Source: Bacillota bacterium (GTDB lineage Bacteria; Bacillota; Sulfobacillia; Sulfobacillales; Sulfobacillaceae). Taken from it: a DNA stretch of 14,812 bases. Made by a program: the position numbers and the translations under genes. Below are positions 726 to 14,797 of the stretch, one piece after another. Below the pieces are notes generated by a model. That model ran no database searches and was not told the DNA's origin. It saw only the letters and a list, made by a program, of their open reading frames with translations. Each line of letters begins with the position of its first letter. Position 1 is the first letter of the stretch. The stretch spans positions 1 to 14,812 of the forward strand of contig JAKADI010000005.1 in assembly GCA_021820675.1 (NCBI GenBank). The letters run 5' to 3'.

Positions 726-1676
726 TCATTCGTACGATGCGTTAAGATTCTGGCGACGCCGATTGCTCAATAACAGGGTCAAAAATACTAGATAGGATAG
801 AGCCACATCCATTATCGACAAATCCCCGTGAGCCAAGGACGCATCGTAAAACCCATGAAATATCGCCGCCAGTAAATAAGCTCCCACAGCCAGATGCCAA
901 TCTCGGTATCCGCGTTGTGCGACTACCCCTAATCCATACGCCACGATCCCCGCCCAAATGGCGTGTAGAAATGGTGTGTACAACGCCCGCGTTAATGCCG
1001 TAATCGTTCCCAGACCCACGCTATGATGCAAGACATCAAACAAGATGCCGTGTTGCACATACGAAATATTTTCTACCGCCGAAAACCCCAACCCCGAGCT
1101 TATACCTACCATCATGTAAGATAGGGGGTTCCACACCTTCTTTTTCGCCCGATTAAAGAGAAAGACAAGCAAAATAAAGATTTGTTTGGCAAATTCCTCT
1201 GTTAATCCAATAAAGAGCACATAGGCCGGAGCGGAAATCAATAAGAACCGGTCGTGTAACAGCAAATTAGCCCCGTGACTAATCCAAAACGACTCCACTA
1301 CCAAGGCAAACAAGACCCCAACGGTCCCAGTAAAGATATACGCGGTAATGTCCAACAACAATGACCGAATGCGCAGTTGTGCAGCCATGAGTGGCTGAAA
1401 AATAAAAAACCAAAATAAGGAAAAATATACCATCATACCGTCAACCACGTTCAAATGAAGTGCTCCCAATAGAATAGGGGTCGTAGCAAAGACAAACAAT
1501 CCCAAAAAGAGCCGTGATTTCAAAATTGTCAGGATGTATAACAATAAGTTATTCGGCAAGGGTCGATAAGCGACAGCAAACAGCCCAGCCTGACGATTGC
1601 GGCAGCTATCACATAGCAGCTCGTCAATCGGTTCCCCGCAATTTTGACATTGGTGGCGATATGGAGGGAGATTCAT
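726..1676 (-). CDS. PrsW-like intramembrane metalloprotease with N-terminal zinc ribbon
   Basis: This 316-residue membrane protein resembles the PrsW/CPBP-type intramembrane protease superfamily. An N-terminal zinc ribbon is formed by C10xxC13 and C22xxC25. Several hydrophobic segments follow from about residue 45. The family motifs are in order: EE at 160-161 followed by K164, E202-N203 in a GFSAVEN context, H238, and H274 with D278 near the end (HGFYD). In Bacillus, PrsW starts cleavage of an anti-sigma factor; the substrate here is unknown and no anti-sigma gene is in the window. The ATG start has AAAGGCGG about 7 nt upstream. A possible sigma-A promoter lies at 1717-1744, so the gene may be transcribed on its own. 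No clear terminator is seen after the stop. The family call is solid, the role is open. Confidence 0.8.
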   Translation of the reverse strand: MNLPPYRHQCQNCGEPIDELLCDSCRNRQAGLFAVAYRPLPNNLLLYILTILKSRLFLGLFVFATTPILLGALHLNVVDGMMVYFSLFWFFIFQPLMAAQLRIRSLLLDITAYIFTGTVGVLFALVVESFWISHGANLLLHDRFLLISAPAYVLFIGLTEEFAKQIFILLVFLFNRAKKKVWNPLSYMMVGISSGLGFSAVENISYVQHGILFDVLHHSVGLGTITALTRALYTPFLHAIWAGIVAYGLGVVAQRGYRDWHLAVGAYLLAAIFHGFYDASLAHGDLSIMDVALSYLVFLTLLLSNRRRQNLNASYE

Positions 1677-1888: not shown

Positions 1889-2233
1889 CTAATCGTGCAA
1901 TAACCCGTGTCGCCAGGCGGCATCGATTCGATCATTCCATGCTTGCCATATATCTTGGGGCTCCTGATGTTCCATTACCCATATGGCGTACCAAATGGCG
2001 GCCCGCATTTCTTGTTCGGGAACACCGATGTCTTTAGCAATCGTCGCCAGAGAGGCTTGCTGTTCCAGTTCTTTGAACAGTTCGGGCACCGTTCGGCGAG
2101 AGCGCCTTCCATATGGCAGTTGGTCACATTGTGTCGGGCTATGCCCAATTTCTTTAAAAATCACCCATAACGGAAATTGCGGATGGGAACGCGTCTCCAC
2201 CCAATATTCTAAGCGCAATGATGCTTCATCCAA
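1889..2233 (-). CDS. Small protein with a DUF433-like region, function unknown
   Basis: From a TTG start this encodes 114 residues. The TTG is preferred because AAGGGAGGT sits 7 nt upstream; the longer frame reaching 2314 has no RBS at its ATG and would run close to the terminator of the sHdr operon. The middle and C-terminal part, with 'VPELFKELEQQAS', 'IAKDIGVPEQEM' and 'AAIWYAIWVM', resembles the DUF433 fold: a short helix-turn-helix-like domain with an AL.YA-type ending, often found in antitoxin-like proteins. The match is loose and the usual GTRIPV-like segment is not evident. No toxin partner is beside it. It lies between the operon terminator and the PrsW-like gene, on the same strand. 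Function is unknown. Confidence 0.6.
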   Translation of the reverse strand: MDEASLRLEYWVETRSHPQFPLWVIFKEIGHSPTQCDQLPYGRRSRRTVPELFKELEQQASLATIAKDIGVPEQEMRAAIWYAIWVMEHQEPQDIWQAWNDRIDAAWRHGLLHD

Positions 2234-2375: not shown

Positions 2376-2828
2376 TCAATTTAGCATCGAAGCTATTCGT
2401 CCCAGCCATTCAATCGCCACTAAATCGATGCCGTCAATTTCCGGCGACTGGCAATCCAACACCGCATAAAGATGATTATCCCGAACAAGGGGAATCCCCA
2501 CTTCACATTGGGTCTCCGGTATTACCGCCACGTACCCCGGAAATTTCTTAATCGAACCCACTATTTGAACGGCACGTTCTGCTGCACAAGACCCTACAAC
2601 ACCTTGTCCCCATGGGATCACAAGCGGAGCAGGAGGGCCGGAAAACGGCCCTAGTGCCATATCATGTCCTAAATGCCACACGCGGTAAAATCCAATCCAC
2701 GACCATGAAGGATATAAGAGGCGAATTTGAGCGACAACGTTTGCCATGACCGCTACATCGTCAGGGCTTCTTTGGCACCAATCGGCAATGCGTGTGAGAG
2801 TATTGTGAAAATCTATCGGTTCGTTCAT
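2376..2828 (-). CDS. GAF-domain protein, degenerate free-methionine-(R)-sulfoxide reductase homologue
   Basis: A single-domain GAF protein of 150 residues matching the fRMsr (MsrC) family in length and layout: W44-IGFYRV, LGPFSGPPAP (59-68), IPWGQGVVG (71-79), FPGYVAV (96-102). fRMsr reduces free methionine-R-sulfoxide using three cysteines, in the contexts P-A-C, G-V-C-G and H-I-A-C. Here those positions read P68, V78 and V102, so all three are gone; the cysteines present are C18, C81, C108 and C126. C81 sits three residues after the lost one and could be a shifted substitute, but classical activity looks unlikely. A ligand-sensing or redox role is an alternative. It is the last gene of the operon, 12 nt after the DsrE-family gene, with only a weak RBS, which suggests translational coupling. 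A terminator follows directly. Confidence 0.75.
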   Translation of the reverse strand: MNEPIDFHNTLTRIADWCQRSPDDVAVMANVVAQIRLLYPSWSWIGFYRVWHLGHDMALGPFSGPPAPLVIPWGQGVVGSCAAERAVQIVGSIKKFPGYVAVIPETQCEVGIPLVRDNHLYAVLDCQSPEIDGIDLVAIEWLGRIASMLN

Positions 2829-2840
2829 ATCGCACGCCCA

Positions 2841-3221
2841 TCAAAAGGATATGACGACATCGGCTTCTAATGCCATTTCGTTAACCGCGCTACCCCCAAC
2901 CACGCCTTCCGTTTCGATCAGATCATCTAACGTGCAATCATTAAGATCTAAGCTGGGAGCACATACAAAAAACTTCACCCCGGCATCACGCGCCTGGTCA
3001 ATGAAAAATTGCAGACGCGCTCCATCGCCGCCCTCCTTAACGGTTAACTCCTCGGCCACGCCACGTTTCAGCAAACCCGTAGCGCGAATGGTAAACACCA
3101 TAGAGACATCATGATCCATCAACGCTGCAGTCGTTGCCAGAAAGAACGGGGAGGCAGCGCGATATGCAATCTCGGGCCCGGTTGTGAGAATATATAAATA
3201 CTTCTTGATATCTGAAGACAT
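2841..3221 (-). CDS. Small DsrE-family sulfur carrier
   Basis: This 126-residue protein belongs to the DsrE/DsrF-like family. Its length is close to that of the small DsrE3 subtypes (B or C) linked to sHdr clusters. It begins with a beta strand and 'TTGPEIAYRAASPFFLA', typical of these proteins. The likely sulfur-binding cysteine is C87 in FFVCAPS, at the end of the central strand; C96 follows nine residues later. DsrE proteins of this kind bind sulfane sulfur as persulfide and exchange it with TusA. The tusA gene is 23 nt upstream, which supports a direct partnership. The ATG has AAAGGAG about 8 nt upstream. The exact DsrE subtype cannot be settled by eye. Confidence 0.85.
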   Translation of the reverse strand: MSSDIKKYLYILTTGPEIAYRAASPFFLATTAALMDHDVSMVFTIRATGLLKRGVAEELTVKEGGDGARLQFFIDQARDAGVKFFVCAPSLDLNDCTLDDLIETEGVVGGSAVNEMALEADVVISF

Positions 3222-3244
3222 AAGCCGCTCCTTTCTTACTGTCC

Positions 3245-3487
3245 CTACTTCATCCGACGAATAAGAAACCGAAAGACTTCTCCCTGCTGTTCAGCCAACA
3301 ACAGTTCGTGACCGGTGGAACGGCACCAGGCTTTGAAATCAGCCATTGATCCCGGGTCGGTACTCAGAATTTCCACTACTTGACCTATCTCCTCAGTCGT
3401 AATACCTTTTTTGGCACGTATAACCGGCATCGGGCATTTCAAACCCGACGCATCAACCTTTAAATCGACCTCAACAGGAGTACTCAT
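3245..3487 (-). CDS. tusA: TusA-family sulfurtransferase
   Basis: An 80-residue SirA/TusA-fold protein. The hallmark motif LKCPMPVIRAKK (CPxP) is near the N-terminus, with the active cysteine at residue 18. TusA receives sulfur as a cysteine persulfide and passes it to protein partners in the cytoplasm; in sulfur oxidisers it links rhodanese or DsrE proteins to the oxidation machinery. The start is placed at the ATG (3487), which has AAAGGA 10 nt upstream. An in-frame GTG three codons earlier (3496) is too close to that site. The gap to the preceding ligase gene is 58 nt, the largest in the operon, but I see no convincing promoter in it. The small DsrE-family gene follows. Confidence 0.93.
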   Translation of the reverse strand: MSTPVEVDLKVDASGLKCPMPVIRAKKGITTEEIGQVVEILSTDPGSMADFKAWCRSTGHELLLAEQQGEVFRFLIRRMK

Positions 3488-3545
3488 GCCATTCACGTCC
3501 TTTCATCGTTTTCCAAACTTTTGGATCCAGCTTCCCTCCAACGAG

Positions 3546-4601
3546 TCACAACTCTGCTCTGCGAAAACATTCTACGATATTCGCTGCGCTAACGCCTGGA
3601 ATTGATACCTGTTGCAACAATCTTTGGCTCTCCTGCAACACATTATCTTCACGGGCGTCCTGACCCTTCAGGTGATTTTCAAAGGCCGCTAAAGCGGGAC
3701 TGTCCCATGGTTGCATAAAGAAATCCCCACTCAGGTGAACATCATCAAAAATTCCCTCGTTTACCCGGTACAACAAGCGCAACAATCCACCTGGGGCTTT
3801 GAACATCCCTTCTCTCACATATACTGAGTCCCGAATTTTGACTCCCGGACTTTCCAGTCCGCTTTCGCCCTGAAATACAAAATCTGGGTCAAAAAGACGC
3901 CTGGCATACTCCTGAACGACCATCTCTTCGGAGTGGGATAACCGGTCCAAATGGATGGACTCATCCAGTATCCCTGCAAAATTGGTGACCAGTGCCGCCA
4001 CGACTTGGTCCCTGCGGGGAGGAGATGTTAATTCTCGGGGAATTGTCGTCATATAATCCCGTAGGCTTGAAATCACTTTGTCGCGAAATTTTTCCGAGGG
4101 CACATTCAAAACACGAGCCATGATCTCCACATCAAAGTCAAACATCAAACTCCCCACGATAACGGTGGTGGTACCGATTGTCGATGCCCCTGTCCCACCG
4201 ATTTTTCGTGGTCCGACTACAATGTCATTGACAGGACGAAAATCCGCCGGAATTCCCATTTGCCGATAAGTGACAATGGGAGCTTGCAATACGTGCCGAT
4301 ACAGCTGCTCTACAGTCCCTATGGGTCTGGGAAGCAGTAGATGCCAGAACACCTGATCTCTATCTAAATACACGGCGCCTCCACCGACATATCGCCGAGC
4401 GATGGGAATTTGGCGCTCTTCACAAAACTGCCGGTCAATTTCCCGACTGGCTAGTTGATGATAGCCCACACAAACATACGGCCTGTCAGGACTTACTGTG
4501 ATTAGGGTACTCTCATGGTCTGGTCTCATTTGCTGGGCCAGAGCATGATAAACCGCTTGAGACACCCGCGCATCAACCGTGCCTAAGTTGAGATATCGCA
4601 C
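3546..4601 (-). CDS. lplA: Lipoate-protein ligase with both LplA and LplB domains (sLpl type)
   Basis: A 351-residue lipoate-protein ligase. The catalytic domain carries RRYVGGGAVYLD (69-80), the lipoate-binding RRxGGGxVxxD signature, and NDIVVGPRKIGGTGAS (125-140) with the catalytic lysine at K133. From about residue 250 a C-terminal accessory domain (LplB-like, needed for adenylation of lipoate) is present, so the enzyme can in principle activate and transfer free lipoate alone. The gene lies 18 nt behind two lipoate-binding protein genes, which points to LbpA rather than 2-oxoacid dehydrogenases as substrate; this matches the dedicated lipoylation recalled for sHdr sulfur oxidisers. It starts with GTG, with AGAGGGG about 8 nt upstream. 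No lipoyl synthase (lipA or lipS1/lipS2) is in the window. Confidence 0.9.
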   Translation of the reverse strand: MRYLNLGTVDARVSQAVYHALAQQMRPDHESTLITVSPDRPYVCVGYHQLASREIDRQFCEERQIPIARRYVGGGAVYLDRDQVFWHLLLPRPIGTVEQLYRHVLQAPIVTYRQMGIPADFRPVNDIVVGPRKIGGTGASTIGTTTVIVGSLMFDFDVEIMARVLNVPSEKFRDKVISSLRDYMTTIPRELTSPPRRDQVVAALVTNFAGILDESIHLDRLSHSEEMVVQEYARRLFDPDFVFQGESGLESPGVKIRDSVYVREGMFKAPGGLLRLLYRVNEGIFDDVHLSGDFFMQPWDSPALAAFENHLKGQDAREDNVLQESQRLLQQVSIPGVSAANIVECFRRAEL

Positions 4602-4619
4602 CTCACGCCCCTCTTTTCA

Positions 4620-5102
4620 TCACGTATTGCCGCCTACTCCGGCACTAGCGTCTTGCAGTGGAGCACAACGCATACAGGTGATACCTTCTTCCTCCAATTT
4701 TATCCGGTAAATAGGTGCCACGTCAGACCCGGGAATAAATTCATCTTGAGGCCATCTATCACTAACCGGATCGATTTCGGCGATCCAACCCTCACCATAG
4801 GGACCCCGATTAATCGCGTTGGGATCGGCCAATACACGCTCGTTAACCCGGCTTACCTTCCCGTCTACGGGAGCTGGAAAAGGACCCACCCATTTGGCCG
4901 ATTCGATAGTCGCCACATTTTTCCCTGCCGTCACAATCTTTCCACCTCGAGCTCTAACGTGAAGGATCTTTCCCGCCCGAGTTTGAGCGGGATCCGTCAT
5001 GCCCAGGCGCAAGGTTCCACAGGGTAGTCTCATGATCCACACATCGCGTTTGACATCAAACCATAAGTCGTCAGGAAATTCACAGGCAAAAACCTGCGAC
5101 AC
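4620..5102 (-). CDS. lbpA: Lipoate-binding protein LbpA (GcvH-like), second copy
   Basis: A 160-residue GcvH-like protein. The lipoyl lysine is K70 in IESAKWVGPF, within the hammerhead fold, followed by the P-APVDGKV and GPYGEGWIAEI segments typical of H-proteins. In sHdr sulfur oxidisers such LbpA proteins replace glycine-cleavage H-protein function and act with the sHdr complex; no gcvP or gcvT is nearby. The GTG start at 5102 is chosen because GAGGAGGGG lies 6 nt upstream; the longer frame to 5213 overlaps the preceding lbpA by about 100 nt and would add an unrelated Arg-rich leader. The N-terminal part (VFACEFPDDLWFDV) differs strongly from the first copy. The C-terminus extends beyond it and has a CxxC (C143, C146). 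It lies 14 nt behind the first copy and 18 nt before the ligase. Confidence 0.88.
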   Translation of the reverse strand: MSQVFACEFPDDLWFDVKRDVWIMRLPCGTLRLGMTDPAQTRAGKILHVRARGGKIVTAGKNVATIESAKWVGPFPAPVDGKVSRVNERVLADPNAINRGPYGEGWIAEIDPVSDRWPQDEFIPGSDVAPIYRIKLEEEGITCMRCAPLQDASAGVGGNT

Positions 5103-5108
5103 AGCTCT

Positions 5109-5117
5109 CCCCTCCTC
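5109..5117 (-). promoter_or_regulatory. RBS deciding the GTG start of the second lbpA
   Basis: GAGGAGGGG on the minus strand lies 6 nt before GTG at 5102 and touches the stop codon of the preceding lbpA (5117-5119). It rules against the longer upstream start. Confidence 0.7.
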
Positions 5118-5554
5118 TACGCGCGGCAATGAATCCCGTCGTGCACCAACTTCTCTCGGTAGGCGTGCACGCCTTCTTCCCCTGTTTCTAGCGCTTTGGC
5201 ATCCTCGTCCCAATTATTAGGTTTCACTTTGAGTAACCAGCCCTCACCGTACGGGTCCTCATTAACCAAACTGGGATGGGATTTTACCGCTGCGTTGACC
5301 TCTATCACCTCCCCTGCTACGGGGGTTGGAATCGATCCAACCCATTTTCCGCTTTCTAAGGTTCCCCCACTCTTACCGCGAGCCAATGTTTTGCCCGCAG
5401 CTTTCAAATTCACCACGATAATTTTTCCCGCCAAGCTTTGGGCCACGTCTGTAAGTCCTACCATGATGTATTCTCCCTCAGGCTTGGCCCACACGTGCTT
5501 CTCGATCCAATAATACCGGTCTTCAGGAATGTTGCATCCTTCAACATCCGCCAT
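5117..5554 (-). CDS. lbpA: Lipoate-binding protein LbpA (GcvH-like), first copy
   Basis: A 145-residue GcvH-like lipoate carrier. It opens with GCNIPEDRYYWIEKHVWA, close to the usual LbpA N-terminus, then VGLTDVAQSLAGKI, and carries the lipoyl lysine K70 in LESGKWVGSIPTPV. The DPYGEGWLLKV segment (100-110) closes the fold. The family role is a lipoylated protein required together with the sHdr complex for thiosulfate or sulfane-sulfur oxidation to sulfite in the cytoplasm. The protein ends in GIHCRA, placing C143 at the same position as in the second copy. The ATG has a strong GGGGGAGGAGGG upstream, suggesting high translation. It follows emo by 17 nt. A true glycine-cleavage H protein is unlikely given the neighbours. 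Confidence 0.93.
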   Translation of the reverse strand: MADVEGCNIPEDRYYWIEKHVWAKPEGEYIMVGLTDVAQSLAGKIIVVNLKAAGKTLARGKSGGTLESGKWVGSIPTPVAGEVIEVNAAVKSHPSLVNEDPYGEGWLLKVKPNNWDEDAKALETGEEGVHAYREKLVHDGIHCRA

Positions 5555-5571
5555 CTTCGCCCTCCTCCCCC

Positions 5572-7569
5572 TTATTTAATCGCGAGTTCAGCATCCGGCA
5601 CGGTCAAGCCTACCGCCTGGGCCAGCAACTCTGCCACATCCACGACCTTCATGCGTCCATCGTTTCCTGTACTTTGAACGGCTGCTGAAAACATGGACAT
5701 ATCCTTAGGACATGCCACCACAAAATAGCCGACATCTTCCAAGGAGGCCGCTTCCTTTATGCGATTATCTGCAGGCCGTTCCTTTATCCCGTCTTCTTCC
5801 ATCCATATCCGGCCGCCGCCTGCACCACAACAGAAGCTATTCGGTCCATGACGGGGCATTTCAACCAATTCAACTCCCATCTTCTCCAGCAATTGTCGCG
5901 GCGCATCAAAAATACGATTCCATCGTCCTAAATAACAGGGATCGTGGTAGGTTACACGTACCCCTAAAGGCGCGGGGGAAAGCCGCCCCTGATCAATGAG
6001 ATCGACAAAAACTTGCGTATAATGTTTCACTGGCTTATCAAAACCCAATTTGCGGTATTCGTTACGTAACGCATTCAAAGAATGCGGATCTGTGGTGAAA
6101 ATTTGACGATATTGAGCCTCGTTTAACCATTTGAGATTTTTTTGGGCTAAACTCTCAAAGAGACCGTATTCCCCCAGGCGCAATGCTTCATTACCCGCAT
6201 TGGACTCTCCTTCATATAAAATTCCAAAGTCTAGACCCGCACGTTGCAGTAGTCTAGCCACCAATCGCGACAGTTCTTGAAGGCGAGGATCATAGGAAGC
6301 AAAATCTCCCACAAACCAGAGCCAGTCCACGGGCTCTTTTCGGGCGTCTTTGATGGCGACATCAAGTCCCTTGGTCCAGTTTGGGCGTCTCCGCAACGGT
6401 TGGCCGAAAGAGTTGCCTTGACGGTCCCACGCAACCAACACCTTCTGACTGTTTTTATCAATTTCTCCATCTTCCAGCAATGCTGCCCGTAATCCCGCAA
6501 TCTTGGGCACATGCTCAATAAACACGGGACATGCTTCCTGGCATGCGCCGCATGTCGTGCAGGCCCACAACTCTTCTGCACTGACCACATCTCCAGCCAA
6601 TGCTCTAGGCTCAGCGCCTGCCAACTCCTGACGCAGGGCGTCGCGTAACTCCAATATCACCATTTTGGGAGACAAGGGTTGCCCCGCAGCATGAGCTGGA
6701 CACACAGCCTGGCATCGTCCACACTCAGTACAGGTAAATACGTCAAGCACATCCTTCCAATTCATATCTTGGAAAGTCCGAATCGCCATCCCCGCATCTT
6801 CTGTCAGCGGTGGCACTAATTCGCCGGCAGGACGCGTTTTATGCAAAAAGATGCTCGGTACCGCCAAAAAAATGTGCAGGTGTTTGGACGTTGGCAAATA
6901 GGCCAGGAATGCAAAGACCATACCGATGTCCAACACATACCCGGTAATATATCCCGCTTCGGCAATAACTGGGGTAGACGCCATGCCCGTTTGAAGCCAT
7001 AAATGTCCTAGTGTATATCCGAGAAATTCCCAAGGATCCAACCGAACTTGCAGGTGATACCAATAGTGTGCGGCAAACGGATAGAAGGATTCATGGAGCA
7101 TGATGCCGACCATAATCACGCCAATCATGCCCAAAATCACATAACCGTCTTTCTCATCAGATCCATGATAACGCTCTGGTCTTATTATTGCCCGCTGATA
7201 CACGGCCAGAATTATCCCTACCAAAACCAAGGCGACCCACAAATCCACAATAAAGGCCAACGCGGCATCTAGTTTTAATCCGGGAACGAAAACCTGCCCT
7301 ATGGAAGCCACGATATCAATAAACAGGATGACAAAACCACTGAAGATAAAGAAATGGAGAATGCCGGATAACCGCTTTTGCAGTAACCGTTTGTGCCCGA
7401 AAACCTGACCCAGCATAAACCCAAGACGGCTGGGCCAGTTGTCCAAACGATCCGTTGCACGGGCTTTTCGCAACACACGCAAGATGGGCAGCATACGCGC
7501 GATAAAATAGGCAGTGGCTCCGGCAAATATGAGAATGGTGAAGACCGCTAACCCCTCTTGGCCCGTCAC
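5572..7569 (-). CDS. emo: EMO: membrane ETF:(mena)quinone oxidoreductase with HdrC/HdrB-like domains
   Basis: A 665-residue fusion. Residues 1-240 form a NarI-like cytochrome b region with about five or six membrane segments (near 5-27, 68-92, 104-124, 143-161, 206-225); candidate haem histidines include H72, H159, H168, H172, H189, H230 and H232. Next come two [4Fe-4S] sites: C280/C283/C286/C290 and C337/C340/C343/C347. The C-terminal HdrB/D-like part has a CCG domain with C545, C580-C581 and C620. EMO proteins take electrons from reduced EtfAB and pass them to menaquinone. Unusually, the first CCG domain lacks cysteines: VGDFASYDPR where relatives have a Cys after the Gly, and GESNAGN where they have EKCTGD; the last CxxC is also reduced to CPKD. 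The GTG start lies 1 nt after the etfA stop and its RBS is inside the last etfA codons, so translation is coupled. Confidence 0.9.
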   Translation of the reverse strand: MTGQEGLAVFTILIFAGATAYFIARMLPILRVLRKARATDRLDNWPSRLGFMLGQVFGHKRLLQKRLSGILHFFIFSGFVILFIDIVASIGQVFVPGLKLDAALAFIVDLWVALVLVGIILAVYQRAIIRPERYHGSDEKDGYVILGMIGVIMVGIMLHESFYPFAAHYWYHLQVRLDPWEFLGYTLGHLWLQTGMASTPVIAEAGYITGYVLDIGMVFAFLAYLPTSKHLHIFLAVPSIFLHKTRPAGELVPPLTEDAGMAIRTFQDMNWKDVLDVFTCTECGRCQAVCPAHAAGQPLSPKMVILELRDALRQELAGAEPRALAGDVVSAEELWACTTCGACQEACPVFIEHVPKIAGLRAALLEDGEIDKNSQKVLVAWDRQGNSFGQPLRRRPNWTKGLDVAIKDARKEPVDWLWFVGDFASYDPRLQELSRLVARLLQRAGLDFGILYEGESNAGNEALRLGEYGLFESLAQKNLKWLNEAQYRQIFTTDPHSLNALRNEYRKLGFDKPVKHYTQVFVDLIDQGRLSPAPLGVRVTYHDPCYLGRWNRIFDAPRQLLEKMGVELVEMPRHGPNSFCCGAGGGRIWMEEDGIKERPADNRIKEAASLEDVGYFVVACPKDMSMFSAAVQSTGNDGRMKVVDVAELLAQAVGLTVPDAELAIK

Positions 7570-7570
7570 A

Positions 7571-8521
7571 TTATTCCCCCCTTAATCGCTGTGCCAATGC
7601 CGGCATTAGCTCCAGCATATCCACGGTGGTTCCGTAATGCGCCACATCCATAATCGACGCGTTTTCATCCGTATTGACGGCAATAATGAGATCGGCATCC
7701 CGCATTCCTTGAAGATGCTCCGGGGCCCCAGAAATTCCCAAAGCCAGATATAATTTCGGTTTGACAGTTTGACCGGATTTCCCCACCTGTCGCGCCTTGG
7801 GAAGCCATCCCGCGTCCACTACCGGTCTTGAACAACTCACTACACCTCCCATTGAAGTTGCCAGGTCTTCAGCCAACGGCAAATTTTCGGGACTTTCAAT
7901 TCCTCTGCCAACACTGACTAAAATATCGGCTTTGGTAATGTCAACATCTCCTGTCTCAGGCTCAATGACCTTTAACACCTCCATCATTTGAGGAGTATCG
8001 ACCGGCCAGGTCTCAAAATCGGGGTCGCCCACATCCGTGTCGGCATTCCAAACGCCGGGGAGAACTGTGACGATCGCCCCCGAATCGGGGATGCGAATCT
8101 CCGCCACGGCCTTTCCGGCAAATATCTGGGACGTTGCCGTAATCTTGTTCCCATTGATCTGAAGATCCGTGCAGTAAGCGATTAGTGGCAAATTGCAGCG
8201 GCTTGCCACCCCCGCACCCAAATCGATCCCCAAAGTGGTATTAGCTATTAATGTGATGCAAGGGGCATTCGCTTTGATGATTTGATCCAAACAGGCTTCA
8301 TACGCGGCAGGGTTGTATGATGCCAGCAAGGCGCTATCCGCGCAAATCACGCGGTCCACGGCTAAACGGCGTAAGGCCTTTTCCGATTGCGGACCAAATC
8401 CAACCGCCATCACCTGGCCGTCCTGGTGTTTGGTCAACTCCCGAGCCTTTCCCAGAAGTTCTCGGCTGGCATCAGTAAATCCTGATGCCCCGTTCTCCAT
8501 TACAACGAGTATCAGCCCCAC
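7571..8521 (-). CDS. etfA: Electron transfer flavoprotein alpha subunit
   Basis: A 316-residue EtfA of usual length. The C-terminal FAD domain is complete: VSVGRGIES (202-210), SRPVVDAGW (231-239), RQVGKSGQTV (244-253), ALGISGAPEHL (260-270) and AVNTDENA (281-288). The N-terminal domain is more divergent. With EtfB it forms a soluble FAD carrier. Here the likely electron donor is the sHdr complex (sHdrA flavin or sHdrB3) and the acceptor EMO, encoded next; this assignment rests on gene order. The GTG start lies 5 nt after the etfB stop, with GAGGGG as RBS inside the end of etfB. Acyl-CoA dehydrogenase genes, the usual ETF partners, are absent from the window. Confidence 0.95.
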   Translation of the reverse strand: MGLILVVMENGASGFTDASRELLGKARELTKHQDGQVMAVGFGPQSEKALRRLAVDRVICADSALLASYNPAAYEACLDQIIKANAPCITLIANTTLGIDLGAGVASRCNLPLIAYCTDLQINGNKITATSQIFAGKAVAEIRIPDSGAIVTVLPGVWNADTDVGDPDFETWPVDTPQMMEVLKVIEPETGDVDITKADILVSVGRGIESPENLPLAEDLATSMGGVVSCSRPVVDAGWLPKARQVGKSGQTVKPKLYLALGISGAPEHLQGMRDADLIIAVNTDENASIMDVAHYGTTVDMLELMPALAQRLRGE

Positions 8522-8526
8522 GGTGA

Positions 8527-9294
8527 TTACCCCCTCATCAAATTGTGTTCCTGAAGAATCTCGATAATCCGGTCAACGGCCTCATCAACATCACCGTCAA
8601 TCATTTCCGCATGTCCTGATGCGATCGGCTTATAAAACCGTAGAATCTCAAGACTGGGAACCTCTTGTATGCTCATCTCAACTTCTTCGAGTTGAGATGA
8701 CTTTGCGATTTGCCGAACCTTGGCAATTGACGCATATCGCGGCGGTTTTCTGGCGGCCTGAACCCCAATTACTGCGGGAGTCGACACCTTAATCTCAGCC
8801 ACTAACCCTCCCGCATATTCCTGACGGAAGATCACGCGATTGTCGTGAGCCCGCACCTCGGTGACAACGGACGCGTGCGGCCACCCCAAAATACCCGCCA
8901 CCAACCCAGGGATCTGCCCGTCAATATCATCAATGGCCTGGACCCCGGACAACACCAAATCAAATGACTGTGGTCCGAGATACTGACTAAAAATGTGTGC
9001 GCGTTGACGATTGGGCAAAGACGGGTCAAAGTCGCCGACGAGTTTGACACCGTGATCTGCGCCTTTTGCCAGTGCCGTAAACAGCATCGTGTCGCTTTCT
9101 CCCGTGTCCACTGTAATGGCTGTTACCTCAGCTCCAGATTCTTCTTTTATCAACAAGGCTTCTTCTAAGGCTTGGTCGTCCCATTCACTGGGTATATAAC
9201 TCATTTCATCGTACAGAATCTCGCCGGATTCTTCGTCAATCGGAATGTCTTCGATTAAATCCGGTACTGATTTCAAAAGCACCGCGATGCGCAT
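8527..9294 (-). CDS. etfB: Electron transfer flavoprotein beta subunit
   Basis: A 255-residue EtfB. It has the opening strand and KSVPD (8-12), the nucleotide-binding segment SGVQAIDDIDGQIPG (116-130) followed by GWPHAS, and the family signature region ending in RKPPRYASI (182-190). It partners EtfA, encoded directly downstream. From the N-terminus alone I cannot say whether the pair bifurcates electrons; with EMO next to it, a simple carrier from sHdr to the quinone pool is the straightforward reading. The ATG has GAGGGGGGA about 6 nt upstream. A perfect 11-bp hairpin (8673-8700) lies in the coding region at codons 199-207. The gap to sHdrB3 is 34 nt. Confidence 0.95.
   Translation of the reverse strand: MRIAVLLKSVPDLIEDIPIDEESGEILYDEMSYIPSEWDDQALEEALLIKEESGAEVTAITVDTGESDTMLFTALAKGADHGVKLVGDFDPSLPNRQRAHIFSQYLGPQSFDLVLSGVQAIDDIDGQIPGLVAGILGWPHASVVTEVRAHDNRVIFRQEYAGGLVAEIKVSTPAVIGVQAARKPPRYASIAKVRQIAKSSQLEEVEMSIQEVPSLEILRFYKPIASGHAEMIDGDVDEAVDRIIEILQEHNLMRG
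8673..8700 (-). repeat. Perfect inverted repeat inside etfB
   Basis: TCATCTCAACT (8673-8683) and its exact complement AGTTGAGATGA (8690-8700) enclose a 6-nt loop. In the transcript this would be an 11-bp hairpin within the etfB coding sequence. It has no U-tract after it, so it does not look like a terminator. Confidence 0.7.
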
Positions 9295-9328
9295 GTACGT
9301 TCCCCCTCACAGAAATAACGTCATCACC

Positions 9329-10609
9329 CTAATTGGCTGCATATTCATCGGTCAATCCCACGCTATAGGCGAGTAATTCAGCAATATCCATAACCGCCAA
9401 TTTTCCCGCATTCCCCGTTGATTTGACCGCATCTTCAAAGCGCGGGACTTCATAGGGGCAAGTTACGGCTAAAATATCGGCTCCGTATTCAATGGCTTCC
9501 CGAACCCGTTTTTCAGATAAACGTTCGCTCGTATAGTCCCGAGTAAAACTATCAAGCCACATTCCGCCTCCGCCACCTCCACAACAGTAAGACGTTTCTC
9601 GGCAGTGCCCCATTTCGACCAATTCCACACCAGGTAGTGCGGTCAAGAGGCGACGAGGTGCGTCATATTCTCCATTGTGACGGCCTAAATAACATGGGTC
9701 GTGAAAAGTAATCCGACGGGGGATAGAGCGCACGAACGACAGTGCGGAAAGACGCTCTGCGAGATATTGGGTATAGTGTTGAACCGGCCAGTCTCCGCCA
9801 AGCTTAGGGTATTCATGAAGAAACGCGTTATAGGCATGAGGGTCCGTCACCACAATGTGATTAAAAGTGTACTTCGACAACATTTTAATGTTGTGCTCTG
9901 CAAGCATCTCAAATAATCCACGTTCTCCGGCCATGCGTTGAGAATCCCCCGCGCACTTTTCTTCATTGCCTAAAATTCCGAAATCGACATTTAGGGCGTT
10001 AAGTAGCCTGGCCAACGCAACCGAGGCCTGTTTACCCCGAGGATGATAGGCAGGGTAACACTCCACGAACCACAAGACATCAACCGGGGATTTCTTTTGG
10101 GCCATCACTGGAACCATAACGCCAGCGGTCTTTGCCCACTCAGCTCGCTTGCGGGGAGACTCCCCAATAGGATTACCGTAACGTGCTGTGTTTTCGAATG
10201 CCGTGAGCAGTTCGTCCGGAGCCTTCCCGTCTAATACCGCTCGCTCCCGGACAGCGGGCATAATCTGAATCATGTTCACCTCTTTAGGGCACACCCGCAG
10301 GCAATTTCGACAGGTTGTGCAGAGCCATAAATCCGGAGAATCCACAAGGGATACGCCCAGCTGTGTTCGGCGAAAGATCTTCCGTGGCGAATAGTCGCCG
10401 ACCGTGTCTACCGGGCAAACCGCGGTACATTTGCCACATTGATAGCAATATCCGAGAGATTCAGCACCTGGGATTGCGGTCGTTTCATCTAACACCGCGA
10501 TATCGTATTCGGATATCGCACGTGGCTCAAACATCCGATTCCAAGAGCCAGATAACTCAACTCCATCCACGACCGCGACATCTAATTCAATGGCTTTGGC
10601 TTTTTGCAA
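9329..10609 (-). CDS. shdrB3: sHdrB3: fused HdrC-HdrB-like iron-sulfur protein
   Basis: A 426-residue soluble fusion. An HdrC-like part carries two [4Fe-4S] sites: C55/C58/C61/C65 and C97/C100/C103/C107. The HdrB-like part has a first CCG region with only C184 and C219, and a second with C305, C342-C343 and C384; the final CxxC is reduced to CPYE. Six glycines follow the CC pair. In type II sHdr clusters this protein stands in place of HdrC2 and HdrB2, and with EtfAB and EMO provides the electron exit. It resembles the cytosolic half of EMO in this window along its whole length, so the two are paralogues. The TTG start has GGGAGGGG 7 nt upstream and overlaps the end of shdrH by 23 nt. Confidence 0.88.
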   Translation of the reverse strand: MQKAKAIELDVAVVDGVELSGSWNRMFEPRAISEYDIAVLDETTAIPGAESLGYCYQCGKCTAVCPVDTVGDYSPRKIFRRTQLGVSLVDSPDLWLCTTCRNCLRVCPKEVNMIQIMPAVRERAVLDGKAPDELLTAFENTARYGNPIGESPRKRAEWAKTAGVMVPVMAQKKSPVDVLWFVECYPAYHPRGKQASVALARLLNALNVDFGILGNEEKCAGDSQRMAGERGLFEMLAEHNIKMLSKYTFNHIVVTDPHAYNAFLHEYPKLGGDWPVQHYTQYLAERLSALSFVRSIPRRITFHDPCYLGRHNGEYDAPRRLLTALPGVELVEMGHCRETSYCCGGGGGGMWLDSFTRDYTSERLSEKRVREAIEYGADILAVTCPYEVPRFEDAVKSTGNAGKLAVMDIAELLAYSVGLTDEYAAN

Positions 10610-11294
10610 CGATATACCCCTCCCATCTGGGAATCCCTAACAGACGCGACACCACTTGAGGAAAAGATGGTAAGACCTGCGTAAATTCCTTGGTAAACCG
10701 CCACGAGGTCATCGTGTATAGATAAACAGCGTAAGTGATGGATAAGGCGACAAGGTGTCTAAAAGAAGGGTTGACCGCGGATAATCGGTGCCATCCATCT
10801 AAAACTTGTTCGGTAAATCTACTGGCTTGAACAATACGAAGATACAACACCGAAGGCTCTTCATTTAGGCATGATGGATCTGTCACGATTAAGGCTACGG
10901 CGCCGGTTTGCGTATCTGAGCGATACATCCACCGCGTCCACCAAACATAATTCTCCGGATGGAGATGAGCTAGCCAAAATGTTCCCCATTCCCACATCCA
11001 CGGAGGCGCCTCATTTTGGGCTAAAATCTCCACAACACGACTCGGTTGTTGTTCCACATCCCGAAGAATGGAGCTATGGATTTGGTTCCAAATGGGGTGT
11101 TGTTCCGGTCTAATCCGAGCCGTCGCCGGCACCACTTGCCGACAACCCGCTTCATCATGCAGCGCCCACCGGATGCCTTGAGCCCTTTGCTCCAACATAT
11201 GATTCCAATGCAGATAGTCCTGGGGGGATACAAACGACTGAGCCTTATCGAGGAATTCGGCCAGGGCCTCGGCGTCAATCACCGGCGGCTTCAT
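10587..11294 (-). CDS. shdrH: sHdrH: conserved hypothetical protein of the sHdr cluster
   Basis: A 235-residue protein of unknown fold that occupies the place of the 'Hyp' (sHdrH) gene between shdrA and the second HdrB-type gene, as recalled for sHdr clusters. It has no cysteine motif (only two cysteines) and is rich in tryptophan, with a cluster PPWMWEWGTFW near residues 97-107 and WWTRWMY shortly after. One hydrophobic stretch near 185-200 is too interrupted to be a sure membrane segment. The start ATG overlaps the shdrA stop (ATGA), so the two are translationally coupled, and the end overlaps shdrB3. The identification rests mainly on position and size; the function is not known to me. Confidence 0.7.
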   Translation of the reverse strand: MKPPVIDAEALAEFLDKAQSFVSPQDYLHWNHMLEQRAQGIRWALHDEAGCRQVVPATARIRPEQHPIWNQIHSSILRDVEQQPSRVVEILAQNEAPPWMWEWGTFWLAHLHPENYVWWTRWMYRSDTQTGAVALIVTDPSCLNEEPSVLYLRIVQASRFTEQVLDGWHRLSAVNPSFRHLVALSITYAVYLYTMTSWRFTKEFTQVLPSFPQVVSRLLGIPRWEGYIVAKSQSH

Positions 11295-12352
11295 CTCACT
11301 TCTAATTCCAGACGCTTCAAAGCCCCTACGGCTTTCGCCGCTGCGGACGCCCCCATCGAGACGGAATCTTCGATATCCTTCGGCCCTGCCGCCGCCCCAG
11401 CGACAAAAATACCGGGAACTGGGGTTGACACGGTATTCAAGGGTCCTCCGATGACTTGCAGGAACCCGTGTTCTTCACGCGGAATCTGAAAGATCCGTGA
11501 CATCTCGACGGTCCCTTTGGATGGCTCCATCCCCACCGACAAGATGACTAAATCCATGAGAACCTCCATGGGACGGCCCATTGTGGTGTCTTCCCCTTTG
11601 ATCAGTAATTTGTCACCCTTGCGAATAATTTCGGTGACAATGCCACGGATATAATTGACCTTATACTCCTCTTGGGCTTTCCAGTAGATCTGATCCTCCC
11701 AGAACCCGTACATCCGCATATCAATATAGAAAATAAAGACTTTCGCGTTTGGTAACATACGCTTGATTTCAATCGATTGTTTAGAAGCAATCCCACAGCA
11801 CACCTTCGAGCAATATTTATTGCCAATCTGACGGTCTCGAGAACCGACACATTGAATGAACGCCACCCGCTCAGGCGGTAATCCGGTAGAAGGCCGGACG
11901 ATGTTGCCGTCTTTGAACATTTTCTCTGCATCCACTAAGGTAATTACGTCGTCGTATTCGTAATACCCGTACATTTGTGTTTCCCGGCCCGGATCGAAGT
12001 GTTGAAATCCTGTGGCGACGACTATCGCTCCCACTTCCTCAACCGTCTGGGCTCCATCTCGATCCAACGTCACGTGAAAGGCTCCTAAAGAACCCTCACT
12101 ATGAACGACACGGGTATTGAGCCTCACATCCACTGCTGAATGATGCTCCACGGCGTCAAGTATCTCCTGCATCGAGTGCTCTGTTTCCTGCAAATCCGGG
12201 GTCAACGTGGCATAATAGGCGTAGGGTGTTCCTCCCAATTGGTCTTTAGTTTCAATGAGCATAGCGCGTTTACCAAGCTCCGCCACGGTACGGGCTGCCT
12301 CCAATCCGGCAGGGCCTGCTCCGACAATCAATACGGTGTCCGCCTTGGCCAT
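11291..12352 (-). CDS. shdrA: sHdrA: flavin and iron-sulfur subunit of the sHdr complex
   Basis: A 353-residue short HdrA-type flavoprotein. The FAD-binding GAGPAG is at 11-16, a second flavin region ATGF at 113-116, and the C-terminal FAD segment GIFVAGAAAGPKDIEDS at 314-330. The HdrA iron-sulfur signature is present as C168 (IQCVGSRD) with C181, C185 and C186 (YCSKVCC). It lacks the N-terminal extra domain and the ferredoxin-type inserts of methanogen HdrA, as expected for sHdrA. It is the central subunit, receiving electrons from sulfur oxidation. The ATG has AAAGGTGGGAG upstream. The 37-nt gap from shdrB1 has no promoter signal, and shdrH overlaps its stop. Confidence 0.93.
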   Translation of the reverse strand: MAKADTVLIVGAGPAGLEAARTVAELGKRAMLIETKDQLGGTPYAYYATLTPDLQETEHSMQEILDAVEHHSAVDVRLNTRVVHSEGSLGAFHVTLDRDGAQTVEEVGAIVVATGFQHFDPGRETQMYGYYEYDDVITLVDAEKMFKDGNIVRPSTGLPPERVAFIQCVGSRDRQIGNKYCSKVCCGIASKQSIEIKRMLPNAKVFIFYIDMRMYGFWEDQIYWKAQEEYKVNYIRGIVTEIIRKGDKLLIKGEDTTMGRPMEVLMDLVILSVGMEPSKGTVEMSRIFQIPREEHGFLQVIGGPLNTVSTPVPGIFVAGAAAGPKDIEDSVSMGASAAAKAVGALKRLELEVR

Positions 12353-12389
12353 GGATGTGATCTCCCACCTTTCTCGGCTTATCGTACGT

Positions 12390-13589
12390 CTACAGAACGT
12401 GTTCCCAGCTTAAATAATCCATCTCACCTTGCTTGATTTTTTCAACATCAGTTTGAAACTCCATCCATGCCTGATCCACGTCGATACCCATTTTCCGCAA
12501 CAACGGACGATAGTCGACCGAATGCCAATGTAACTGGCACACCCGAAATGGATGGGCGCCCAACGCCAACGCCGCAAACTGTGACTCGGACATAACCGGC
12601 ACGCCAACATCACGGCCATGGACTTGGGCTGCAAATTGACTTTTATCCAAGGAGGTGACACATCCTGTATCATGGGTCAGAACCACGTCAGGATTGGCCT
12701 CTTGCTTCATCACCTCAATTTTTCTCAGCGTTGCAAAACTCCGGGTAAAATCCCGCTGAACCAAAATGTGCCGGAAACCAAATCCACAGCAGTCATACCA
12801 AGTCGAGTAGTCGGCCACCCTAGCACCCAGTTCTTGCACAACCGCCGTAACGGCCGCTGTGCGTTGACCCCCATAAATTTCGGGGTCATAAATGGCATCG
12901 CCCGTTTGCAGTTTGTAATAATGACAGGCAGGATGGACCGTAGCTACAATGCCGGACAGGTCATATTGCACACGCTGAGCCAACGCGTCTCGCACCGCGT
13001 ACATCCATTCGCTATAATGGACGATTTCTTCGGGCATCACGAATGGTCGCCCCAATTTTTCGATAACAGCCCGCACTTGTCTACGCAACTTGGCGTCATG
13101 CACCAATTCGTGCCGTACTTCTTTATAATGGCCAAAACTGGTTCCGCAGTGGATGAGGGGAAAGTATCCGCTTTCATAAGCAGCCGAAAAGTTTCTCATT
13201 GCCACTGCAGCCTGAGCCGCCTGATTAGAAGTTGCTGACGCATAATAATTCCAAGCGGTACACGAAGTCTGATCTCGTGGATCGAAATAGTCAAAGCCCA
13301 GAACTCGATTGAGCCAAAAAATCGATGTCGAATATCCAGGAATGTGTCCGCATTGCCCACAACTCTTATGGTGCCAGGTCTTTTGCAGGGGAATTTTTTT
13401 CTGCCGTCCATACTTTGTGGGTGCCAAATAATAAGGTTCTGGCACCGGTTGCACGATCCATTCCCCTTCACGTCCAAGTTCCCAAATCGCTTCACGCAAG
13501 TCCTCGTCTTGCACAGTTTCAGGGTCTCTCTCAAACACTCGTGATGTTTGCACCTTAGTCCCTACGACAGGCAGCTCTTGAGCTTCCAT
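12390..13589 (-). CDS. shdrB1: sHdrB1: HdrB-like subunit, proposed active-site subunit
   Basis: A 399-residue HdrB-type protein with two CCG-related domains. Domain one has C77/C80 (CGQCGHIPGY), C110 (SCTAW) and C148 (HCGTS). Domain two has C222 (HPACHYYK), the CC pair C267-C268 in YDCCGFG, and C310 (TGCVTS); the second Cys of the final CxxC is replaced. About 70 residues before the first cysteine extend the protein beyond the roughly 300 residues of methanogen HdrB. In methanogens HdrB carries noncubane [4Fe-4S] clusters that split the heterodisulfide; in sHdr the bound substrate is thought to be a sulfur adduct, and the reaction runs in the oxidative direction. The ATG has a near-perfect AAGGAGG site. 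It follows shdrC1 by 27 nt. Confidence 0.92.
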   Translation of the reverse strand: MEAQELPVVGTKVQTSRVFERDPETVQDEDLREAIWELGREGEWIVQPVPEPYYLAPTKYGRQKKIPLQKTWHHKSCGQCGHIPGYSTSIFWLNRVLGFDYFDPRDQTSCTAWNYYASATSNQAAQAAVAMRNFSAAYESGYFPLIHCGTSFGHYKEVRHELVHDAKLRRQVRAVIEKLGRPFVMPEEIVHYSEWMYAVRDALAQRVQYDLSGIVATVHPACHYYKLQTGDAIYDPEIYGGQRTAAVTAVVQELGARVADYSTWYDCCGFGFRHILVQRDFTRSFATLRKIEVMKQEANPDVVLTHDTGCVTSLDKSQFAAQVHGRDVGVPVMSESQFAALALGAHPFRVCQLHWHSVDYRPLLRKMGIDVDQAWMEFQTDVEKIKQGEMDYLSWEHVL

Positions 13590-13616
13590 CTTACTGATCC
13601 TCCTTCGTGATCCCCA

Positions 13617-14303
13617 CTACCCGGGGAGAAGTCCCGACTCTTCTATCGCATCGTCCATAATTTCCTCCATGATGTCATGAAGGCCTTCATCGAGTTCGGC
13701 TATCATATCCAAAGTCCCTGTCATTTTCCAGATGGCGTATAACTCGTTCATGGTCCGTTCCTCGACTTGCCAAGACAAACCCGTGGTATGCAACGTTTCG
13801 GGCGGGAGCGCTCGCCTCCACAGATCCAGGTTGTCTGACACCTCTTTGACTTGGGGACCCCAGTCAGGAAATGCATCTTCTTGCAGCATGTCAGGCGAAA
13901 CCTGCGTACCGGTCGTCGTAATCTTATAAATAATACGGGTGTATCCGGCCAAAGCTTCTTTCGTCGTTCGTAAACCGTTTTTCACGGCAACTTCGCGCAT
14001 GATCGTAATTAGACCGCCCGGGCTATTCTGGCGAGGGCAACGGTTACAGGAGAAGCACTGGGAACAGTTCCACACGTCATCATTAAGTTGCTCATAAAAC
14101 AAATCGACGTCTTCTCTGGCCAGAGTCTGAGTAATTTTTCGGGGAGAAAAATCATAAAAACGCGCTGAGGGACAAGCAGCAACACAAATTCCACATTCGT
14201 AACATCCGTAAAGATAGTTTTTATAGCGAGGATCGGCAGCAACCTGGTCAAATAGTCGTTGTTTTTCTTCGAACGAAACCTCGGTATACAAATCAGAGGG
14301 CAT
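13617..14303 (-). CDS. shdrC1: sHdrC1: HdrC-like ferredoxin subunit
   Basis: A 228-residue protein with two [4Fe-4S] motifs: C34/C37/C40/C44 (CYECGICVAACP) and C80/C83/C86/C89 (CSQCFSCNRCP), the second lacking the usual CxxxCP spacing. It relays electrons between sHdrB1 and sHdrA. The ATG at 14303 is chosen because TAAGGAGGT lies 7 nt upstream; a longer frame from a TTG at 14333 has no RBS and overlaps the preceding stop. The C-terminus is acidic (about residues 198-222, many Asp and Glu), a possible docking surface. It follows the first DsrE gene by 26 nt. Confidence 0.92.
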   Translation of the reverse strand: MPSDLYTEVSFEEKQRLFDQVAADPRYKNYLYGCYECGICVAACPSARFYDFSPRKITQTLAREDVDLFYEQLNDDVWNCSQCFSCNRCPRQNSPGGLITIMREVAVKNGLRTTKEALAGYTRIIYKITTTGTQVSPDMLQEDAFPDWGPQVKEVSDNLDLWRRALPPETLHTTGLSWQVEERTMNELYAIWKMTGTLDMIAELDEGLHDIMEEIMDDAIEESGLLPG

Positions 14304-14310
14304 CGTACTA

Positions 14311-14319
14311 ACCTCCTTA
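14311..14319 (-). promoter_or_regulatory. RBS deciding the ATG start of shdrC1
   Basis: TAAGGAGGT on the minus strand, fully complementary to the 16S 3' end, lies 7 nt before the ATG at 14303. It excludes the longer frame from the TTG at 14333. Confidence 0.75.
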
Positions 14320-14329
14320 GCTCCAACAC

Positions 14330-14797
14330 TCAAATAAACAACGAGATTTTGGCGTCCCGGGCAAAATCCAAAAAGGTCGCAGCTCCCACCACATCCTCAA
14401 CTTCGGTCACCAAATCTTCTCGCTTAACGCCTAAGACATCCATGGACATTTGGCACGCCACCATGTGCACACCCAAATCCTTAGCCTCGGTGACGAATTC
14501 CCGAATCGACATGACATGAGAACTGGCAAATTGGTTTTTCATCATCGATGACACCATTTTGGTACCAAATGGAACCATACCAGCAACCTTGGCTAAGGCA
14601 GGCATCCCAGGGTTCCCTGCAATGGAGACCGACAAGTTATCGATTTTATCCTTGTGAATGACATCTAAACCCCAAAAGGTGAAAAACAGCATGCACTCCA
14701 TATCTATGGCCGCAGCCGCTGTTGCCAAAATAAACGGCGGATAGGCCATGTCTAAACTTCCTTTAGAGACAATAATGGCTAAACGATCTTGTTCCAC
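14330..14797 (-). CDS. DsrE3-type sulfurtransferase (DsrE3A-like)
   Basis: A 155-residue DsrE-family protein of the longer DsrE3A/peroxiredoxin-like type. It opens with AIIVSKGSLDMAYPPFILA and ends the central strand with C115 in ACQMSMDVLG, the cysteine expected to carry sulfane sulfur; C35 (MECMLF) is the other one. A Met- and Gly-rich segment at 61-90 (PGMPALAKVAGMVPFGTKM) is typical of this subtype. The protein delivers sulfur, probably together with TusA, to the sHdr complex encoded directly behind it. The GTG start has AGGGGGG about 6 nt upstream. Only 15 bases remain before the window edge, so the operon may begin further upstream, and its promoter is not seen. Confidence 0.88.
   Translation of the reverse strand: MEQDRLAIIVSKGSLDMAYPPFILATAAAAIDMECMLFFTFWGLDVIHKDKIDNLSVSIAGNPGMPALAKVAGMVPFGTKMVSSMMKNQFASSHVMSIREFVTEAKDLGVHMVACQMSMDVLGVKREDLVTEVEDVVGAATFLDFARDAKISLFI

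What the first reader, a model, noticed from the sequence alone, without database searches (positions are those of the whole stretch)
2376..14797. A complete type II-like sHdr sulfur-oxidation operon with its own lipoate-carrier system and quinone exit
Fifteen minus-strand genes with gaps of at most 58 nt join sulfur transfer (two DsrE proteins, TusA), the sHdr core (C1, B1, A, H), a fused HdrB3, EtfAB, EMO, two LbpA proteins and their ligase. The cluster type is recalled as known (sHdrC1B1AH-B3-EtfAB-EMO); the presence of ligase, tusA, dsrE and a GAF gene in the same unit makes it a compact self-contained pathway. It implies that electrons from cytoplasmic sulfur oxidation reach the quinone pool through an ETF, which is inference from gene order.
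Basis: partly seen in the sequence, partly recalled or inferred. Interest (0 to 1): 0.75.

Follow-up and report, generated by a model that had tools for sequence, protein, structure and literature searches.

The report
Known sulfur-oxidation operon, odd extra gene
The window holds a sulfur-oxidation operon of a kind already published for Sulfobacillus bacteria; what stands out is that its last gene is a relative of a methionine-repair enzyme that has lost its active-site cysteines yet stays tied to this operon in nearly all the related genomes examined.

Summary
In detail: fifteen minus-strand genes (14797-2376), largest gap 49 or 58 nt, encode DsrE, sHdrC1-B1-A-H, fused sHdrB3, EtfBA, an EMO-like membrane protein, two LbpA, a lipoate ligase, TusA, DsrE and a GAF protein. 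It meets the published definition of a type II sHdr cluster. It is not new: Justice et al. 2014 report this 'hdr gene cluster II' in all Sulfobacillus genomes they studied, in two forms. 'Self-contained' fails: no lipoate synthase is encoded in the window (a LipS2-like gene lies on another contig), and the contig ends 15 nt above the first gene.

[quoted passage not shown] All 28 out-of-cluster copies compared keep both active-site cysteines; 0 of 27 cluster copies keep either, and 27 of 27 share a tryptophan found in 0 of 28. It follows DsrE directly in 26 of 26 clusters that have it and in Alicyclobacillus tolerans. Two orphan genes, orfX (in the window) and orfY (beyond it), co-occur with the cluster. 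Best reading: a known type II sHdr pathway with a lineage-specific, non-catalytic accessory protein.

The parts
14330..14797 (-). DsrE family sulfur carrier (DsrE_a), first gene; Cys35 and Cys115
   Evidence: Pfam DrsE_2 152.6 bits; NCBIfam DsrE2 136.3 bits, under its 210 cut-off; cysteines
13617..14303 (-). sHdrC1, 4Fe4S dicluster domain (likely ATG start 14303; ORF opens at 14333)
   Evidence: Fer4_8; HdrC models, all under their cut-offs; start from ribosome-binding site
12390..13589 (-). sHdrB1, proposed catalytic subunit
   Evidence: CCG domain; HdrB model under cut-off; 81-91% identity in the Sulfobacillus-like loci and A. tolerans
11291..12352 (-). sHdrA, FAD and Fe-S
   Evidence: Pyr_redox_2; HdrA2 model under cut-off; CVGSRD...CSKVCC
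10587..11294 (-). sHdrH, no Pfam family; helical, confident AlphaFold model (mean pLDDT 92.7)
9329..10609 (-). sHdrB3, fused C2-B2 type
   Evidence: two 4Fe4S motifs plus two CCG stretches in one ORF
8527..9294 (-). EtfB
   Evidence: Pfam ETF
7571..8521 (-). EtfA
   Evidence: Pfam ETF and ETF_alpha
5572..7569 (-). EMO-like membrane protein with 4Fe4S and CCG domains
5117..5554 (-). LbpA1, ESGKWVG
   Evidence: Pfam GCV_H 124.6 bits; motif
4620..5102 (-). LbpA2, ESAKWVG (GTG start)
   Evidence: Pfam GCV_H 86.7 bits; start
3546..4601 (-). lipoate-protein ligase, catalytic plus C-terminal domain
   Evidence: LplA-B_cat 132.7 bits; Lip_prot_lig_C 21.7 bits, under cut-off 24; LplB 52.1 bits, under 65
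3245..3496 (-). TusA (CPMP)
   Evidence: Pfam TusA 81.4 bits
2841..3221 (-). DsrE family sulfur carrier (DsrE_b)
   Evidence: Pfam DsrE 49.8 bits
2376..2828 (-). fRMsr-derived GAF protein without the active-site cysteines
1889..2233 (-). orfX, conserved orphan, candidate helix-turn-helix protein (ORF opens at 2314)

Best explanation
This is the Sulfobacillus-type (Justice cluster II) type II sHdr operon. Sulfane sulfur is handed along DsrE/TusA carriers to the sHdrC1-B1-A-H-B3 complex and its lipoylated LbpA proteins and oxidised in the cytoplasm to sulfite; the electrons leave through EtfAB to the EMO-like protein and the menaquinone pool. The ligase attaches lipoate made by synthases encoded elsewhere in the genome. 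The lineage added one protein to the unit: an fRMsr paralogue that gave up methionine sulfoxide reduction and now most likely serves as a non-catalytic partner of the DsrE_b step. Shown here: gene content, order, conservation, intact motifs, loss of the cysteines, constraint on the dead copy. Inferred: every reaction, the direction of electron flow and the partner role. The confidence below is for the operon's identity and direction; for the partner role of the GAF protein alone I would say about 0.45.
For: Families and motifs. The published type II rule (shdrC1B1AHB3 and etfAB in one syntenic cluster) is met. Core genes in 25 of 28 loci from relatives; type II cores also in Chloroflexota, Actinomycetota, Bacteroidota, Calditrichota, Planctomycetota and Gemmatimonadota. 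Core tree: the window's gene order forms one side of a branch (SH-aLRT 99, quick search, no bootstrap). GAF: nearest solved structures are 3ksg/3ksf (E 2.6e-18, 4.9e-18, unnamed by depositors) and 3mmh, a methionine-R-sulfoxide reductase (1.6e-17); cysteines 0 of 27 against 28 of 28, W73 27 of 27 against 0 of 28; one branch parts the two sets, 100/98; dN/dS 0.06-0.24 in seven pairs; directly after DsrE_b in 26 of 26, overlapping it in 17 of 26 (L050 was added by position).
Against: In S. acidophilus TPY all six hdr genes were more abundant on FeSO4 than on elemental sulfur (PMC5114278, passages), which does not fit simple induction by sulfur. I found no biochemistry for this operon. A relative with a reduced cluster (G035, L036) lacks the GAF gene, orfX and orfY, and none of the 63 loci from other lineages shows the cluster GAF in the stretch held, so none of these is needed for a type II system as such. 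Some dS values are saturated.
Confidence: 0.8

Rival explanations
1. The unit runs as a reductase or disproportionation module: sHdr takes up electrons through Etf, or electrons from sulfane oxidation go to sulfur reduction rather than to quinone.
For: Higher hdr mRNA on FeSO4 than on sulfur in S. acidophilus TPY. Justice et al. suggest electrons from sulfane oxidation at Hdr could reduce sulfur.
Against: In Hyphomicrobium denitrificans LbpA2 and the ligase are needed for thiosulfate oxidation with sulfite formation (passages). The EtfAB-EMO set suits quinone reduction (inference).
Confidence: 0.12
2. The GAF protein is still a redox enzyme in the window's genus: two new cysteines (C81 in GSC, C126 in LDC) give a different thiol chemistry.
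For: Both are present in 8 of 8 genus members, window included.
Against: Neither is in any of the other 19 cluster copies, so this cannot be the shared function.
Confidence: 0.12
3. The GAF protein is a small-molecule sensor that tunes the operon together with orfX and orfY, not a partner of DsrE.
For: GAF is a common ligand-sensing fold (general knowledge); orfX and orfY co-occur with the cluster, orfY is divergent from it in relatives, and orfX resembles helix-turn-helix folds weakly.
Against: The GAF protein has no DNA-binding domain by Pfam; position and overlap tie it to DsrE_b.
Confidence: 0.3
4. The GAF gene is a decaying fRMsr copy carried along by the operon.
For: Catalytic residues are gone; it changes faster than most operon genes.
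Against: dN/dS 0.06-0.24, new invariant residues, one origin, and kept in 25 of the 26 relative loci long enough to show it.
Confidence: 0.04

Closest known systems
hdr gene cluster II (IIa/IIb) of Sulfobacillus, Justice et al. 2014, PMC4378227 (passages seen)
   Same: EtfAB, a long membrane HdrC-like protein, DsrE, TusA, GcvH-like and ligase genes; two forms. AMDSBA1 and AMDSBA4, listed there under IIa, show the window's gene order here (L092, L095).
   Different: The main text has 0 occurrences of GAF; its Figure 4 is not held, so the gene may be drawn there as 'hypo'. They count 2 CCG domains and 6 helices in the long gene; I find one CCG stretch and 5 helices.
Type II sHdr as defined in PMC11582611 (passages seen)
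   Same: shdrC1B1AHB3 and etfAB in one syntenic cluster.
   Different: TusA and DsrE_b lie downstream of the ligase and are followed by the GAF gene; in most loci of other lineages that show them they lie upstream of C1.
Type I sHdr-LbpA of Hyphomicrobium denitrificans
   Same: C1, B1, A, H, LbpA, DsrE, lipoate ligase.
   Different: Type I is defined by separate C2 and B2. A second, more distant cluster is also in this genome (C110, B1 fragment 57% identical); its type was not tested.
Free methionine-(R)-sulfoxide reductase (fRMsr)
   Same: Sequence similarity over 22-149 to solved members.
   Different: Both essential cysteines are lost in 27 of 27; the second aspartate of LDxD is lost in 27 of 27, the first is kept in 11 of 27, the window among them.

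Membership tests
Type II sHdr system | shdrC1, B1, A, H and fused B3 in one syntenic cluster | tested here: met
Type II sHdr system | etfAB in the same cluster | tested here: met
Type II sHdr system | lipoate-binding LbpA with lipoylatable lysine | tested here: met
   two copies; lipoylation itself not tested
Type II sHdr system | oxidises sulfane sulfur to sulfite in the cytoplasm | not testable with these tools
   none
EMO (ETF:menaquinone oxidoreductase) | membrane domain fused to 4Fe4S and CCG domains, next to EtfAB | tested here: met
   5 predicted helices, two 4Fe4S motifs, one CCG; the family name and this definition are recalled, and no model for it was in the libraries' answers
EMO (ETF:menaquinone oxidoreductase) | accepts electrons from ETF and reduces menaquinone | not testable with these tools
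   none
sLpl(AB) ligase with LipS1/LipS2 synthase | dedicated ligase and synthase | tested here: inconclusive
   ligase present but under the Lpl cut-offs; a LipS2-like gene on contig C112 (query scored 203.7 of 270 for NCBIfam LipS2); LipS1 not searched in this genome
fRMsr | two essential cysteines (Cys60 and Cys84 in the T. acidophilum enzyme, PMC6211008) | tested here: not met
   0 of 27 cluster copies have either; 28 of 28 outside copies have both. That these alignment columns are Cys60 and Cys84 of that enzyme is inferred from the motif
DUF433 or helix-turn-helix regulator (orfX) | family score over cut-off or clear fold match | tested here: inconclusive
   [not shown]
HhH-GPD glycosylase fold (sHdrH; fold name recalled) | fold match over the domain | tested here: inconclusive
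   [not shown]

The most novel reading that the evidence does not exclude
This bacterial order turned a methionine-repair enzyme into a dedicated, non-catalytic component of cytoplasmic sulfur oxidation. The dead fRMsr was recruited once, fixed behind DsrE in the type II sHdr operon, gained its own signature (W73, Q88), and was passed with the operon to or from Alicyclobacillus; with orfX and orfY it forms a lineage-specific accessory set for the pathway.
Probability: 0.6. Interest if true: 0.5.

Novelty: new member of a known kind. Interest (0 to 1): 0.35.

Why it matters
The operon adds one more species to a published system, so by itself it is ordinary. The GAF gene matters more: an enzyme that lost its chemistry yet stayed tied to a sulfur-transfer step across related families points to an unrecognised part of the type II sHdr machine. 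With orfX and orfY it gives three named genes to test in a pathway of acid-mine and bioleaching bacteria.

Tried and rejected
Chance grouping of ORFs: rejected, the core recurs in relatives. GAF as an active fRMsr: rejected on the cysteines. The L112 GAF hit (54 bits) is a 780-aa protein that looks by eye like a multi-domain sensor, not counted. out_L091 was a duplicate of a cluster copy (G039) and was dropped from the tree and the 28. Six weaker matches are not among the 28: G042 (keeps a cysteine at the second position, not the first) and G045 (keeps the first; the match stops before the second) were looked at; those of G050, G052, G054 and G060:C205, in ORFs of 459-930 aa, were not. Consensus promoters 19 against 17.4 expected and terminators 11 against 15.7: uninformative. 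Near-identity search of window 2376-6000 in plasmids: no match. No tRNA. orfX in the A. tolerans genome: no hit, which shows little. PDB sequence searches with orfX, orfY and sHdrH profiles: 0 hits, 1 and 6 chance-level hits. Literature searches: 30 of 1,121 listed; 20 of 34 listed; none held both 'sHdr' and 'GAF' as whole words, none held GAF domain with heterodisulfide reductase-like and sulfur oxidation. Most subscription papers are not in that library; the 2024 sulfur-transferase paper on sHdr and the papers naming EMO were not seen.
Full report
WHAT IS THERE. The window is the whole of contig C391 (14812 nt) of a genome given as 61% complete. Two starts need correction: LbpA2 at GTG 5102 and C1 probably at ATG 14303. 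Gaps are at most 49 nt, or 58 nt with the internal TusA start. The contig ends 15 nt above the first gene. Below the GAF gene come orfX and a PrsW-family gene.

WHOSE IT IS. By C1, B1, A and B3 together the nearest relative is 91% identical over 1403 columns. The same-genus genome G006 has a 314209-nt contig, the length of the one named Sulfobacillus benefaciens AMDSBA1 in the named collection, so I place the window in that genus. No call names the order; 'Sulfobacillales' is my label for the order that the genome search reports as the window's own.

IS IT KNOWN. Yes. Passages of Justice et al. 2014 (PMC4378227) describe 'hdr gene cluster II' in all Sulfobacillus genomes of that study, with many of the subunits of their cluster I (HdrA, B, C, two DsrE, TusA, a GcvH homologue, a lipoate ligase), plus EtfAB and a long HdrC-like gene with six membrane helices and CCG domains; the legend names forms IIa and IIb. 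Passages of PMC11582611 define type II as shdrC1B1AHB3 plus etfAB in one syntenic cluster, which this window meets.

DISTRIBUTION. Many of the 63 carry the same type II core; several lie on short contigs. Two gene orders exist among the window's relatives: A, with EtfBA-EMO right after B3 (window, its genus, genus g11, A. tolerans), and B, with EtfBA-EMO at the end after the GAF gene. Order A is one side of a branch in the core tree (SH-aLRT 99). Several Chloroflexota and Actinomycetota loci also run B3-EtfBA-EMO-LbpA-LbpA-ligase, so A looks ancestral; that is inference.

THE GAF GENE. It scores below cut-off for Pfam GAF but matches solved proteins of the fRMsr kind, the best named one being 3mmh, a methionine-R-sulfoxide reductase. 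In the loci of relatives it is present in 25 of 28 (24 by score, L050 by position); L041 and L059 are contig fragments and L036 (G035) lacks it. With the window and A. tolerans that makes 27 cluster copies. In the named set it is in 15 of the 16 Sulfobacillus-like loci (many of them the same genomes; L096 is a 6-kb contig) and in 0 of the 63 others, the L112 sensor aside. I compared the 27 with 28 copies from elsewhere in the searched genomes; six weaker matches were left out (see Tried and rejected). Both active-site cysteines are in 28 of 28 outside copies and in 0 of 27 cluster copies; the aspartate of HIACD in 28 of 28 against 1 of 27; the second aspartate of LDxD in 28 of 28 against 0 of 27, the first in 28 of 28 against 11 of 27; W73 in 0 of 28 against 27 of 27; Q88 in 1 of 28 against 26 of 27. 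One branch separates the two sets (100/98; unrooted). The gene is under constraint (dN/dS 0.06-0.24 in seven pairs, some with high dS), though it changes faster than most operon genes. It follows DsrE_b directly in 26 of 26 (25 loci and the window), overlapping it in 17. PMC6211008 (passages) states that the two cysteines are critical in the archaeal enzyme, so reductase activity by the known mechanism is very unlikely.

ORFX AND ORFY. orfX is found in 26 of 61 genomes, all among the 29 with sHdrH, and in 0 of the 32 without. The three exceptions are G027 (cluster only as a fragment), G028 (71% complete) and G035. In G008, G017, G024 and G026 it lies on a different contig from the cluster, yet is still there. 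orfY, upstream of the operon and divergent in relatives, is found in 25 of 61, again all within the 29; the four without are this genome, whose contig ends there, and the same three. In some order-B genomes orfY and orfX overlap by four bases, e.g. L035. Relatedness inflates such counts; three within-genus contrasts (g3: G018/G009; g8: G022/G014; g9: G023/G015) go the same way for sHdrH, cluster GAF, orfX and orfY; G009 and G019 have only a more distant B1. orfX is modelled at mean pLDDT 68.8 with a confident helical stretch; fold rows are mostly helix-turn-helix DNA binders but weak, and the top row is not one.

LIPOATE. No lipoate synthase lies in the window. LipA was not found in this incomplete genome but over cut-off in 7 of 7 other genus members. 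A LipS2-like gene is on contig C112. Of the 29 genomes with sHdrH, 13 have such a gene at E below 1e-150; the other 16 have none at the 1e-30 limit, and 15 of these 16 have LipA, so LbpA there may rely on LipA. The unit is not self-contained.

HOW IT WORKS. I take over the published sHdr-LbpA model (passages): carriers deliver sulfane sulfur, sHdr with LbpA oxidises it to sulfite, electrons leave. The EtfAB-EMO route to menaquinone is inferred from gene order and domains. Against simple sulfur induction stand the S. acidophilus TPY transcripts. The GAF protein most likely acts beside DsrE_b without redox chemistry of its own; a sensor role is the main rival.

VERDICT. Known system, new member; the unusual part is the dead fRMsr.

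Noticed in passing
L044:13971-14372 (+); L215:6591-7043 (+); beyond the window's end: orfY, a ~120-aa orphan family divergent from the sHdr operon in relatives and directly behind the GAF gene in A. tolerans; no Pfam match at E 0.1 in 13 of 13 members.
   Followed up: partly
L217:1315-1584, L218:1492-1800, L219:2354-2680: Beside orfX in three genus-g11 genomes lies a TusA-like gene whose CPMP cysteine is replaced (RPMP): a second sulfur-carrier relative without its active-site cysteine.
   Followed up: no
[not shown]
   Followed up: partly
L221 (G000:C110): A second, more distant sHdr-like cluster in the same genome: B1 fragment 57% identical, C1, LbpA, TusA, DsrE and ligase genes.
   Followed up: partly
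L046:4819-9678: In G005 shdrA shows as two ORF pieces about 3.5 kb apart, as if interrupted by an insertion.
   Followed up: no
G017, G022-G027, G029, G031, G032, G034, G036, G038-G040: Fifteen sHdrH genomes without a detected LipS2-like gene but with LipA, so LbpA lipoylation there may not need LipS1/S2.
   Followed up: partly
window 726-1676: PrsW-family membrane protease gene next to orfX, in the same place in several genus members.
   Followed up: no
about L044:13830-13980 and upstream of DsrE_a in L045, L042, L046, L052, L056, L058: Conserved AT-rich block (AAGTTA...TTCACAAA) above the operon, shared between two genera.
   Followed up: partly
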